Source: Epinephelus fuscoguttatus (Eukaryota > Chordata > Actinopteri > Perciformes > Serranidae). From it: a DNA stretch of 64,000 nucleotides. This document shows, one piece after another, positions 19,701-25,700 of this stretch. The number at the start of each line of letters is the position of its first letter. Position 1 is the first letter of the stretch. Under the pieces are notes generated by a model. That model saw only the letters and a list, made by a program, of their open reading frames with translations. It searched no databases and was not told where the DNA came from. The position numbers and the translations under genes were made by a program. Location of the stretch: NCBI RefSeq assembly GCF_011397635.1, contig NC_064755.1:39414059-39478058 (forward strand), read 5' to 3'.

Positions 19701-22700
19701 CCAGAAGTGACCAGATTTGGACGAGAGGGTGAATCTGACTAAGGAAGCTGAGGCCACTATCGGCAGACAGACACTCAAAGTCACTCAATGCGGCCCGCCC
19801 TTAATTATGCATAACTTTAAGCCTTAATAAAATGTAAACGGGTGAATTATATAAAGATTCACCCCTGTGCAGTTGTCATGAATGTTGAAATTAGCTTTTA
19901 AGACCAAAAACAATATTTTGTATCAGGCTGTAAACATGTTTATTTCTGCTGTAAAGTTGGGTATTTTAGCCAGGATACCTATAAGGATGGACTCGCTCTT
20001 TGAGCCAGCCTCAAGTGGTCATAAGAGGAACTGCAGTTTTTGGCACTTGTGCATTGGTTTCATTTTTCAGCTCCGGAGGTTGCTGCTTTCTGAAGACACT
20101 CTCACCTTCTTAGTCAGTGTTATTTGAGTTTCTGTGGGAATAAATATTTTTGATTATTTTATTTTAAAGAGCTGGAGATTATTTGTGTTGCTGCTGGTGA
20201 ATAAAACCTGCTTCCAAATTGCCTTTTTTACTTGTTTTGTTTTTGTGGAATCAGGACAAAGAGAAGGACAACGTGGACAGCACAAAGTGGGGTGTCTCGA
20301 TCTGCACTGTGGATGGACAGAGGTACGTCCAACTCAGTTGTTAAATTCCAGCAACTTTTCATCCCACAGTTCAACAGCTTTGTTTATAATTCATTATTTC
20401 AACATGCAATGCAGATTTTTCTAAAAAAATATTTGGCATGTACTTTATCTTTTTGTTAAGTTCTGGCTTCACTTATGGGGAGCTGTCTTGTCATCCATCT
20501 TTATAGTCCATGTTTGTAGCAAAGTATGTGGTATTAGTACTCTTACTAAAGTATAGGATCTGAATGCTTTCTCACCACTGCCTGTAAATTAGTGGAACTT
20601 GTATTTTGTAACTTGCATCTCAGTGTAGACCAATGTTTGTGTAACAATGAGTTAAACCTGGTCATCACTTCCTCTTGTTTCTTCAAAATAAAAGCCTTTT
20701 GTTAATAGCAGCTGTGAGAGAAAAATGAAAAAAGAACAGGTTTGGTTTGTCTGTGTGTCAGGCTGTCCCTGGGTGACTGGGCCGGCCCTCTGGTTCTGGG
20801 TGAGGTGTCATGGCCGCTGGTGTACGGCGTGGCGGTGGACCTGCTGGGCTCTGACCTCGTCCATCGATATGTTGGCGTGGAGGAGTTCTCCAGACACAAC
20901 TCTCCGTTCACACTCACCAAAACAGGTCCAGGATCATACATCTTCTCTCTGCTTTCACCTAAACTGCCACAATCAGAGTCCACAATCACATTTCTAATAT
21001 TTCTCCCACCCAAATTCTGTCTGATATTTTAGATTTTAGAACAAATAGTTGACATTATTTCAAGTTCTTCTTTGCAACAGCTGCACAGCAATTACAGGGA
21101 AGTAGTCACTGGCAATATAAAAGAATGCCAACAATGCTCATTAAATATAAAAACAAAAAACATGAGTAAAAATGAAAATCTACGACATAAAATAGTGCAG
21201 ACATTAAAATATAGGGATGAAATATGAAATAAATAATATATATTTATGGTAGACAGGTGTAAAGGTGTACTTGCAAAGTGAATAAACTGTAATGTAAGTA
21301 TAAGTCATACTAGCCCTCACCTCACCTCACCTCACCTCACCTCACCTCACCTCCAGTATTCCGATCCTTTCTGACAGCCATATCTTTTCTAGGGTAGAAA
21401 GCCACTATTATATCTATCTATCTATCTATCTATCTATCTATCTATCTATCTATCTATCTATATATATATATATATATATATATATATATATATATATATA
21501 TATATATATATATATATATATATATAGATAGATAGATAGATATATATATATAGATATATATATGTAGTATTTTCACAGTGTGGTATTATTTGTACTTTTA
21601 CTTAACCTGTTCAGTATATATACAGTACAGGCCAAAAGTTTGGACACACCTTCTCATTCAATGTGTTTTCTTCATTTTCATGACTATTTACATTGTAGAT
21701 TCTCACTGAAGGCATCAAAACTATGAATGAACACAAATGTACTTAAAAAAAAGGTGAAATAACTGAAAACATGGGTTTTATATTCTAGTTTCTTCAAAAT
21801 AGCCACCCTTTGCTCTGATTACTGCTTTGCACACTCTTGGCATTCTCTCCATGAGCTTCAAGAGGTAGTCACCTGAAATGGTTTCCACTTCACAGGTGTA
21901 CCTTATCAGGGTTAATTAGTGGAATTTCTTGCTTTATCAATGGGGTTGGGACCATCAGTTGTGTTGTGCAGAAGTCAGGTTAATACACAGCCGACAGCCC
22001 TATTGGACAACTGTTAAAATTCATATTATGGCAAGAACCAATCAGCTAACTAAAGAAAAAGGTGGAGTGACTAAATACTTTAAGAAATGAAGGTCAGTCA
22101 GTCCGACAAATTGCAAAAACTTTAAATGTGTCCCCTACAAAAGATCTGAACAACCATCAAGCGTTAGAAACTGGCACACATGAGGACCTCAGAACAGGAA
22201 AGGAAGACCAAGAGTCACCTCTGCTTCTGAGGATAAGTTCATCCGAGTCACCAGCCTCAGAAATGGCAAATTAACAGCAGCTCAGATCAGAGACCAGATG
22301 AATGCCACACAGAGTTCTAGCAGCAGACCCATCTCTAGAACAACTGTTCTGGCAACAAGCAGAAAAGATTTGTTTGGGCCAAGAAACACAAGGAATGGAC
22401 ATTAGACCAGTGGAAATCTGTGCTTTGGTCTGATGAGTCCAAATTTGAGATCTTTGGTTAATCACGCCGACATTTGTTTTGTGAGATGCAGAAAAGGTGA
22501 ACGGTTTTGATTCCACATGCCTGGTTCACTGTGAAGCATGGAGGAGGAGTGTGATGGTGTGGGGTGTTTGCTGGTGACACTGTTGGGGATTTATTCAAAA
22601 TTGAAGGCACACTGAACCAGCATGGCTACCACAGCATCCTGCAGCGACATGCCATCCCATCCGGTTTGCGTTTAGTTGGACGATCATTTATTTTTCAACA

Positions 22701-25700
22701 GGACAATGACCCCAAACACACCTCCAGGCTGTGTAAGGGCTATTTGACCAAGAAGGTGAGTGATGGAGTGCTGCGGCAGATGACCTGTTTTCTAAGTCTG
22801 ACCTGAACCCAATCGAGATGGTTTATGAGCTGGACCACAGAGTGAAGGCAAAGGGGCCAACAAGTGCTAAACACCTCTGGGAACTCCTTCAAGACTGTTG
22901 GAAAACCATTTCAGGTGACTACCTCTTGAAGCTCATGGAGAGAATGCCAAGAGTGTGCAAAGCAGTAATCAGAGCAAAGGGTGGCTATTTTGAAGAAACT
23001 AGAATATAAAACATGTTTTCAGTTATTTCACCTTTTTTTGTTAAGTACATAACTCCACATGTGTTCATTCATAGTTTTGATGCCTTCAGTGAGAATCTAC
23101 AATGTAAATAGTCATGAAAATAAAGAAAACGCATTGAATGAGAAGGTGTGTCCAAACTTTTGGCCTGTACTGTATATATATATATATATATATAATATAT
23201 ATATATGTATATATATGTATATATTTGTGTGTGTTTAAAACATAAATGGGTTCTGAACAGGTTAAGTAAAAGTACAAATAATACCACACTGTGAAAATAC
23301 TACAAGCCAATCTTGTGGTGATTGTTTTGTCAACTGCAGTGAGGTTTGTTAGACTGCTGCATTTGTAAAGGTTTATCTTACACAAAATTACCAAATTCAA
23401 AAACAACAGACACAAAATGGGTTTTTATTCCTGTCTCCTCCTCCTGTCTCCGCCTGTGCAGCAGAGGGCAGTAACACTTTGATTAAAATATCTGTTTGCA
23501 GGAATCCCTCACAGCCCGCTCACTGAGCCAGGTGCCATCGTTACAACATCTTTACTTCAGGTGCCTCGCTCATCCATCATCCATTAATCCATTACCACTA
23601 ATATCACTGCCTCTAATGCTGTGTGTTATGTGTCTGCAGCTGGCGGGGCGGCTGTCTGCTGAGGAAGAGGAGAAGTACGACTCAGTAAGTGACACAGACT
23701 GTAGGAACCAGAGGTGGAGTATGACTAAATACATTTTCTCCAGTAGTGCATTTAAGTACACATTTGAGGTACTACTTTACTTCTACAAAAGATCTGAACA
23801 ATTCTTCCTCCAGTGTTAGAAACTGTGAATGTTCACTCAGAACAGTTTGTTTTTTTGTAGGTGCTGAACGTCATCCGAAGGCTCTGCAACAAGGAGCACG
23901 CCAACTTAAACTGCACCAGGTACTAATACTGCAAACAGGACCACGGTGTTACTGATATATCTTCTTCCTCCATTGTTGTTAAAACTCATCAGAGATCCTA
24001 CAGTAAGCAGCTGTTTGAGGAAATTACTGGGACTTTTTTAATTCAACATGAAATTATATATTTGGGTTGTGTTGGCAGTATATTGTGTAAAGTTGTTTAA
24101 TCACCCCACTGAGGGACATTTGTTTATGTGGATGTAGTAAAGAGAGTTTTGTTCTCTTTAGTTATCAGAGCAGCAGGAAGGCCAGTGTCAGACTTCACGC
24201 TCTGTCCTTCTACCTGCAGGAGAAAAAGGTAAAACATCTTTTAAAATGAAATTTAAAACCTCCTCTTCAACAGAATCAACCCATGTCTCTTTTCTTAACA
24301 ATCTCCTGTCTTCTAGTGTTTTCCAGAGAAGGCGGACATTAATGCTGCTTTGGATCTAATGCTGCAGGTAAAACACTGTTGCTTTACATCCCAACATATC
24401 AGTACAGTGAGAAAAAAAATTCTGTTGATCTGTTTTCTAAGTCTGTTCTAAAATGATTTATCACCTGTGTTTATGACTTAGGAACAGATGAAAAAAGGTT
24501 TTGCAGGATGAGTTTCCCATATTCCTTTAAAACAAAAAATAAATAAATAAAATAAAGTCATCTGTGAAACACGTGGAGGAAAAAAAATCTTTTGCAAGTG
24601 ATTTTTTAGTGAGCGTGTTTGTTGGTGCAATACTCATTTTGGCCACAAGAGGCTGAAGTGCACCACTACCCCGTGTTTTAAATAGAGTTACCCAGGAATG
24701 GGTCTTTAAACTTGGGAATGAGTCAACATTTCTGCACTCTGGGTTCCCTCGTCTTCAAGTCAGTGGGTTTTTTGAATGGGTTTTTCATTAGACGCCTGAG
24801 ATAAGGTCTGTGGCTAACACAAGTTTGAGAGACTTCCAAGTTTTGTTCTACGACATAAAATACTTAAGTAAATACCCCACTCGTTTATTCTGAAGCTTTC
24901 ATGAGTCTTTAAAAAATGCGACTGCCAACAGGTTGCTTACTGAGAAAACTGTATTAGATATTTTGTTTTTAATTTTCCATTCATGACATGTTACAGCCAT
25001 GCTGTGAAGATTGGAATGGATAAGACATGCGACTGTAGTGTAGTTAGTTTGTTACTTACATTAGCTTTTTATCTCTTGCGATTGCATTTAGGCTTCAAAA
25101 ATCATAAAAGCGGTGTTCATTTGTGAAGATTATCTTGCTGAACAAAGCTTGCAAGTATCATAAACTTTGTTATAATCCAAAATCTAATGAAAAAAAATCC
25201 CATAGCCTTTTTGACAAGGGATGCTAACTTCTACCTCAGCCTACAGAAAAATGTCAACCCTGGAGCACTCATCAATCCCATTCACTTTTTACATGATATA
25301 CATTCAGAAAATAAATACAGACCTGTTTCTGTGCCAATATCACAAAATCTACAAGACTTAAAAATGTAGTTTTTACTTTTAAGAAGTTGTTCTGTTCTAT
25401 AAATGAAGTGTAATATTTTAAAATATACTTATTTAACTGAATACAGTATTAATTATTATACTCTGACTCTATTGGACTCAGCTGTGTCTCTACTGTCTGT
25501 CTCACAGTGCGCCTCCACAGAGATCACCACCCCGAGATACTCAGGGACTTTAAGGTTGTAAATTTTATGTGCTGCACTGAGTTGTGGTGGAAAAACTAAT
25601 TTGACCAGGTGCTGGTCAGCACGTGGCAACACGGAAATTATGCTGTCCATGATTGCCAGGTTTAGCGACAGAGATGAAGGATTTACTCCACCACATCATC

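What the first reader, a model, noticed from the sequence alone, without database searches (positions are those of the whole stretch)
20255..24367. Glutaminase-family gene with every visible catalytic residue replaced
Aligned by eye to GLS/GLS2, the conserved structural text is clear ([34 protein letters not shown]). The known GLS active-site positions nevertheless read Glu for Ser286, Trp for Lys289, Glu for Asn335, Ser for Glu381, Leu for Asn388 and Met for Tyr414, and the segment with Tyr249 (YIPQLA) is absent. The reading frame is open over 17 exons with consistent phases, which argues against a simple pseudogene. This points to a vertebrate glutaminase pseudoenzyme that may regulate, scaffold or bind rather than hydrolyse glutamine.
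Basis: partly seen in the sequence, partly recalled or inferred. Interest (0 to 1): 0.8.

Follow-up and report, generated by a model that had tools for sequence, protein, structure and literature searches.

The report
Glutaminase relative without its active site
What appears to be a fish genome carries a fifth, fast-evolving relative of the glutamine-splitting enzyme glutaminase that has lost its catalytic residues, and apparently half of its catalytic domain, yet still reads as an intact, selected gene, so it probably does a non-enzymatic job.

Summary
At 20255-24367, inside a longer chain at 15000-26272, lies a homologue of vertebrate glutaminase (E 3.8e-58 to a GLS2 chain; Pfam Glutaminase 93.5 bits). 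All 7 checkable catalytic positions are replaced. Four other glutaminase loci in the genome keep those 7 residues. It is not a simple dead gene: nine of nine core introns keep the paralogues' phase; omega on its branch is 0.12, LRT 19.06 against omega 1, reached by 0 of 60 null simulations. An intact chain tolerates only about 0.02-0.04 neutral substitutions per site, whereas the 7 catalytic codons needed at least 16 base changes. Catalysis was therefore lost while the gene was still selected as coding. It may be the orthologue of zebrafish 'glsl', reported in swim bladder (PMC6197330); untested. Expression, function and both ends of the protein remain unproven.

The parts
15000..15038 (+). 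exon 1 (putative start ATG; low confidence, an acceptor-like cttgcag lies just upstream, so the true first exon may be elsewhere)
   Evidence: acceptor read by eye; no 5' exon with ATG, at least 12 codons and donor score 6 or more found at 12401-16740
15827..15935 (+). exon 2, Pro/Gln-rich, no counterpart in the paralogue models (low confidence)
16550..16673 (+). exon 3, Pro-rich, no counterpart in the paralogue models (low confidence)
16757..16823 (+). exon 4, start of EF-hand_14 domain (DVLFDSFA...)
17518..17630 (+). exon 5, EF-hand_14 domain ([12 protein letters not shown]); 113 nt against 119-122
17990..18119 (+). exon 6 (FVIPDF), same length and phase as in all four paralogues (130 nt)
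20255..20322 (+). exon 7, lid segment replaced ([11 protein letters not shown] for VADYIPQLAKFSPDL), then [12 protein letters not shown]; 68 nt against 80
20762..20925 (+). exon 8, catalytic Ser286 to Glu and Lys289 to Trp, activation loop replaced; 164 nt as in all four paralogues; weak donor
21620..23180 (.). decayed Tc1/mariner-like transposon (approximate bounds, family label recalled) inside the exon 8-9 intron; not part of the gene product
23502..23560 (+). exon 9, Asn335 to Glu ([14 protein letters not shown]); 59 nt as in all four paralogues
23640..23684 (+). exon 10, 45 nt against 33 (4-aa insertion)
23861..23919 (+). exon 11, 59 nt as in all four paralogues
24162..24228 (+). exon 12, Glu381 to Ser, Asn388 to Leu; 67 nt as in all four paralogues
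24317..24367 (+). exon 13 ([17 protein letters not shown]), Tyr414 to Met; 51 nt as in all four paralogues
25508..25554 (+). exon 14 ([16 protein letters not shown]); its start resembles the paralogues' LCSIEVT exon, the rest of that exon is missing; weak donor, low confidence
26194..26272 (+). exon 15 with stop; resembles the last ankyrin exon of glutaminase ([23 protein letters not shown]), same entry phase; modest support
   Evidence: 10.8 bits, E 0.035
26300..26305 (+). AATAAA polyadenylation-type signal starting 28 nt after the stop
   Evidence: sequence

Best explanation
A fifth glutaminase-family gene of this (apparently fish) genome, diverged early on the GLS2 side or between GLS and GLS2, that encodes a glutaminase pseudoenzyme. 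It keeps the N-terminal EF-hand_14/helical domain and the framework of the first half of the catalytic domain. It has lost the Ser-Lys dyad and the other substrate contacts; its lid, activation loop and most of its filament-interface helix are rewritten; the second half of the catalytic domain is not found. It therefore should not hydrolyse glutamine. Shown: homology, loss of residues, intact reading frame, purifying selection averaged over its branch. Inferred: it acts as a binding protein. The mode I think most likely (about 35%) is association through its retained N-terminal domain with an active glutaminase subunit or another partner, lowering or localising glutaminase activity in a particular epithelium.
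For: phmmer E 3.8e-58 to a GLS2 chain; Pfam Glutaminase 93.5 bits over profile 12-180 of 286 and EF-hand_14 at full length. Nine of nine internal introns of exons 4-13 have the same phase as in four of four paralogues; six of these exons have identical lengths in all four and exons 5, 7 and 10 differ by multiples of 3. 0 of 7 catalytic columns retained against 69 of 140 invariant columns overall (hypergeometric p 0.0074). Branch omega 0.121 against 0.032 for the enzymes, LRT 19.06 against omega 1; 0.143 (LRT 5.43) and 0.145 (LRT 12.69) in the two parts of the protein; 0 of 60 null replicates reach 19, highest 9.06, other parameters held fixed. Neutral intactness: P 0.0195 at 0.02 and 0.0005 at 0.04 substitutions per site for 15 exons; for exons 4-13 alone 0.080 and 0.006. 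At least 16 base changes in the 7 catalytic codons, 14 in 6 without Tyr249. A working-enzyme-then-dead model needs 1.3-1.5 neutral substitutions per codon at paralogue-like ages, and is 15.7 log units worse than the free model when capped at 0.12 per codon. Third-position GC 0.663 against 0.368 in introns. Polyadenylation-type signal 28 nt after the stop.
Against: No transcript evidence. Two of 14 donors are weak. In serine beta-lactamase-like folds the missing C-terminal half supplies most of the central sheet (recalled), so the remainder may not fold as a glutaminase. No evident mitochondrial targeting sequence by eye, so meeting a mitochondrial partner is unproven. Synonymous sites are saturated between these genes; the two-omega model is not significantly better than one omega for all branches (LRT 2.69), and a branch average includes any early enzymatic phase. 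Sites fixed differently in GLS and GLS2 do not favour a GLS2 origin (of 6: 2 like GLS, 0 like GLS2, 4 neither).
Confidence: 0.72

Rival explanations
1. A long-maintained pseudoenzyme that is now dying in this species: the C-terminal truncation and weak splice sites are recent decay.
For: Exons for the second half of the catalytic domain and most ankyrin repeats not found; weak donors at exons 8 and 14.
Against: The entire 15-exon chain is open with GT-AG at all 14 introns; polyadenylation-type signal in place. Neutral decay of up to about 0.02-0.03 per site is not excluded.
Confidence: 0.17
2. A full-length pseudoenzyme whose C-terminal exons exist but are too diverged to detect, or are misassembled.
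For: The same profile method misses 3 of 10 known exons of the first half and puts 3 more only at E 0.03-0.36, where a fragment outside the gene also scores E 0.56. The genome-wide Pfam search did not list even this gene's known exons at E 0.001, so displaced diverged exons would be missed too.
Against: The missing part includes long exons (177 and 132 nt), the first of them 95-98% identical to human GLS in C24 and C7, yet no fragment of 24300-61000 passed the inclusion threshold; the best was the last ankyrin exon at E 0.035. The window has no N.
Confidence: 0.15
3. Ordinary decaying pseudogene of an active glutaminase.
For: All 7 catalytic residues checked are lost; long branch, 1.45 substitutions per site.
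Against: No stop or frameshift in 406 codons and GT-AG at all 14 introns; omega 0.12, LRT 19; the two-phase model contradicts the intactness bound.
Confidence: 0.04
4. An enzyme with a rebuilt active site and another substrate.
For: New Glu at 286 and 335 are chemically capable groups; gene under constraint.
Against: Half the catalytic domain is not found; lid and activation loop are rewritten.
Confidence: 0.03

Closest known systems
Zebrafish glsl (glutaminase-like)
   Same: A fifth glutaminase-family gene beside glsa, glsb, gls2a and gls2b that does not cluster with the mammalian orthologues (PMC6197330, passages read); the window genome also has four other glutaminase loci plus this one.
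   Different: I could not obtain its sequence, so orthology, catalytic state and domain length are untested. It is reported in the swim bladder at 120 hpf and down on glula knock-down (PMC11546858, passage).
GLS2 (liver-type) and GLS (kidney-type) glutaminase
   Same: EF-hand_14 plus first half of the Glutaminase domain, intron phases, order of blocks, possible last ankyrin exon.
   Different: 34.7-37.9% identical, against 65.0-88.6% among the six enzymes compared; 0 of 7 catalytic residues; lid and activation loop replaced, filament-interface helix mostly rewritten (Q379 and S380 kept); second half of the domain not found.
Bacterial glutaminases (for example YbgJ, YbaS)
   Same: Weak match to solved bacterial glutaminases (E 3e-5 to 3.6e-4).
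   Different: Complete enzymes, much more distant.

Membership tests
Glutaminase family by descent (PF04960) | Significant match to the family profile | tested here: met
   93.5 bits, cut-off 27
Glutaminase family by descent (PF04960) | Complete domain | tested here: not met
   Profile 12-180 of 286 only; rest not found at 24300-61000, with limited sensitivity
Active glutaminase (GLS/GLS2) | Ser286-Lys289 dyad and Y249, N335, E381, N388, Y414 | tested here: not met
   0 of 7 retained; all 7 present in 4 of 4 paralogues and in both human enzymes
Active glutaminase (GLS/GLS2) | Tyr466 and the C-terminal part of the domain | tested here: not met
   Segment not found
Active glutaminase (GLS/GLS2) | N-terminal EF-hand_14 domain | tested here: met
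   59.6 bits, full length
Active glutaminase (GLS/GLS2) | C-terminal ankyrin repeats | tested here: inconclusive
   Only a last-exon remnant, E 0.035; no Pfam ankyrin hit at E up to 1
Active glutaminase (GLS/GLS2) | Mitochondrial targeting peptide | not tested
   Start exon uncertain; none evident by eye
Pseudoenzyme | Catalytic residues lost but gene kept under coding constraint | tested here: met
Pseudoenzyme | Transcribed and translated; no activity | not testable with these tools
   No RNA or protein data
glsl orthologue | Sequence and synteny match to zebrafish glsl | not testable with these tools

The most novel reading that the evidence does not exclude
Teleosts carry an ancient, conserved pseudo-glutaminase (glsl) that lost catalysis and half of its catalytic domain long ago and survives as a binding regulator of glutamine metabolism in a fish epithelium such as the swim bladder.
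Probability: 0.35. Interest if true: 0.65.

Novelty: new variant of a known kind. Interest (0 to 1): 0.47.

Why it matters
The paper searches I made showed no description of a glutaminase pseudoenzyme (listings, plus passages of PMC9368350). If real and shared by teleosts, it would give a natural separation of the glutaminase scaffold from its catalysis and filament assembly, in a family that is a cancer drug target, and 'glsl' in zebrafish expression studies should not be counted as a glutaminase.

Tried and rejected
Rejected: simple pseudogene. Not supported: that exon 14 is a fusion of two ancestral exons. Its phases fit, but its DNA resembles the 3' end of the penultimate paralogue exon no better than shuffles (3 of 3 paralogues, p 0.44-1.0) and the 5' end of the LCSIEVT exon only in C24 (p 0.018; C7 0.10, C1 0.17, C13 0.71). 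Rejected: a second close copy in the genome (one search gave 17 matches: 14 on this locus on C4, one each on C13, C1 and C24 at E 0.06 to 0.94). No orthologue in prokaryote or viral contigs, as expected. Tree: the best placement is beside human GLS2; attachment to fish or human GLS is excluded (p-AU 0.027 each), attachment directly to C7 marginally (p-AU 0.045, but not by KH or SH), the four other placements are not; 5000 replicates were used and IQ-TREE warned that this is too few for AU. A 5' exon with a strong donor was not found. (bacterial terminator scan) is irrelevant to a vertebrate gene. Structure prediction was not attempted: a spliced protein is not a letter-for-letter translation of the window. 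Left out of counts: codon columns with a gap in any of the five sequences (270 kept). My C13 model ends before the ankyrin exons (not seen); the further 10 kb of C13 and the two C4 flanks fetched were not examined.
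Full report
What is there. Read as GT-AG exons, the region gives a 15-exon, 1221-nt chain in one frame with no internal stop, 406 aa, from 15000 to 26272. The protein matches 28 distinct sequences of solved chains; the longer GLS2 and GLS chains (species recalled as human or mouse) score E 3.8e-58 to 2e-51 over about aa 90-375. It matches the Pfam families Glutaminase (93.5 bits, profile 12-180 of 286) and EF-hand_14 (59.6 bits, full length). The finding's coordinates are exactly exons 7-13.

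Paralogues. A six-frame search with the family profile finds four other loci in the genome, on C13, C24, C7 and C1 (12 matches; none on C4 at E 0.001, so this gene is too diverged for that search exon by exon). I built their gene models. C13 and C24 are 84-85% identical to human GLS over the aligned part. C7 and C1 are 66-67% identical to human GLS2 and about 70% to human GLS, so calling them gls2 copies is provisional. All four keep the seven catalytic residues checked. The window protein is 34.7-37.9% identical to each of the six enzymes compared. A search with the window protein gave 14 of 17 matches on its own locus and three weak ones on C13, C1 and C24.

Anatomy. Exons 4-13 correspond one to one to exons of the paralogues. 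All nine internal introns have the same phase in four of four paralogues; six exons have identical lengths in all four (130, 164, 59, 59, 67, 51 nt), exons 5, 7 and 10 differ by multiples of three, and exon 4 cannot be compared because I set the paralogues' start by hand. Then the correspondence breaks. The paralogues continue with exons of 177, 132, 93, 62, 77 and 64 nt and a last ankyrin exon (the C13 model ends after the 93-nt exon); the window gene has one 47-nt exon beginning CASTEIT (compare LCSIEVT) and a last exon resembling the last ankyrin exon. A profile of the paralogues' second half found nothing above its inclusion threshold at 24300-61000; the best was that last exon at 10.8 bits, E 0.035. 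As a control, the same method applied to the first half recovered fragments for 7 of 10 known exons, 4 of them above the inclusion threshold, with one fragment outside the gene at E 0.56. The absence is likely but not proven.

Active site. Y249K, S286E, K289W, N335E, E381S, N388L, Y414M: 0 of 7 retained, against 69 of 140 columns invariant in all six enzymes (Y249 depends on gap placement). PMC10912226 (passages read) describes the Ser286-Lys289 chemistry, the lid loop at Tyr182-Lys188 of GLS2, the activation loop, the helix Asn308-Thr317 with Asn308 in the filament interface, and Y466W as a catalysis-defective mutant. In my alignment the lid and activation loop are replaced and the helix is mostly rewritten (Q379 and S380 stay), while [12 protein letters not shown] (I for V/L), PHxP, GAIV and YLxEKKCFP persist. 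PMC13204110 (passages; docking and simulation) names the same contact residues. Tyr466 and the C-terminal strands lie in the part not found.

Dead gene or maintained gene. In 60 null replicates with the other parameters held fixed the highest LRT was 9.06. Both parts of the protein give about 0.14 (LRT 5.43 and 12.69). One omega for all branches is not significantly worse than two (LRT 2.69) but drives the branch to an extreme length. In simulated neutral decay with assumed indel and transition rates, the 15-exon chain stays intact with P 0.0195 at 0.02, 0.0015 at 0.03 and 0.0005 at 0.04 substitutions per site; exons 4-13 alone give 0.080, 0.026 and 0.006. The seven catalytic codons differ from the paralogues by at least 16 bases (14 in six without Tyr249). 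A model of a working enzyme followed by a dead gene needs 1.3-1.5 neutral substitutions per codon when the first phase is as long as in the paralogues, more than ten times the bound of about 0.12; its best grid point, with a first phase of 30 at the grid edge, still needs 0.7 and reaches -3724.8 against -3721.7 for the free model; capped at 0.12 it falls to -3737.4. Third-position GC is 0.663 against 0.368 in introns. Hence the catalytic residues went while the gene was still selected as a protein. Limits: sites are saturated, the branch average includes any early enzymatic phase, and recent death of the gene within about 0.02-0.03 per site is not excluded. Two donors are weak.

Placement. The window gene has a branch of 1.45 substitutions per site. 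The best tree puts it beside human GLS2; attachment to fish or human GLS is excluded (p-AU 0.027 each), attachment to C7 marginally (0.045); the other four placements tested are not excluded (with too few replicates by IQ-TREE's own warning). Sites fixed differently in GLS and GLS2 are uninformative (of 6: 2 like GLS, 0 like GLS2, 4 neither).

Literature. [quoted passage not shown] Its sequence is in a supplement I could not read. PMC11546858 (passage) and PMC9368350 (passages) list glsl as differentially expressed. Searches for glutaminase with pseudoenzyme and fish (9 papers, listing only; none about a glutaminase pseudoenzyme by title or start of abstract), glutaminase, pseudoenzyme and GLS2 (0 papers), glutaminase-like and teleost (0 papers) and glutaminase-like and glsl (1 paper) showed no description of a glutaminase pseudoenzyme in the held library.

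Mechanism. Glutamine hydrolysis is ruled out on present anatomy, by inference, not by assay. The retained EF-hand_14 domain and framework suggest a binding role. Association with an active glutaminase subunit is my first guess (about 35%), weakened by the missing half domain and by no evident mitochondrial targeting.

Noticed in passing
window 10827-12308 (+): Single-exon open frame for a TRIM-type protein (RING, B-box, PRY-SPRY; coiled coil below its cut-off) ending in an Asp/His-rich tail.
   Followed up: partly
window 21620-23180: Decayed Tc1/mariner-like transposon (label recalled) with long, closely similar terminal inverted repeats in the exon 8-9 intron.
   Followed up: partly
window 61000-63700 (+): Exon-like fragments that look to me like PRR5/PRR5L (label recalled; one 46-aa piece gave no Pfam hit).
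   Followed up: partly
window 1504-1882 (-): Fragments that look to me like a C15orf40/UPF0235 relative (label recalled; no Pfam hit for one 67-aa piece).
   Followed up: partly
window 37969-38292 and 40012-40251 (-): Two closely similar open fragments (TWPEIASSQAV...), a repeat within the window.
   Followed up: no
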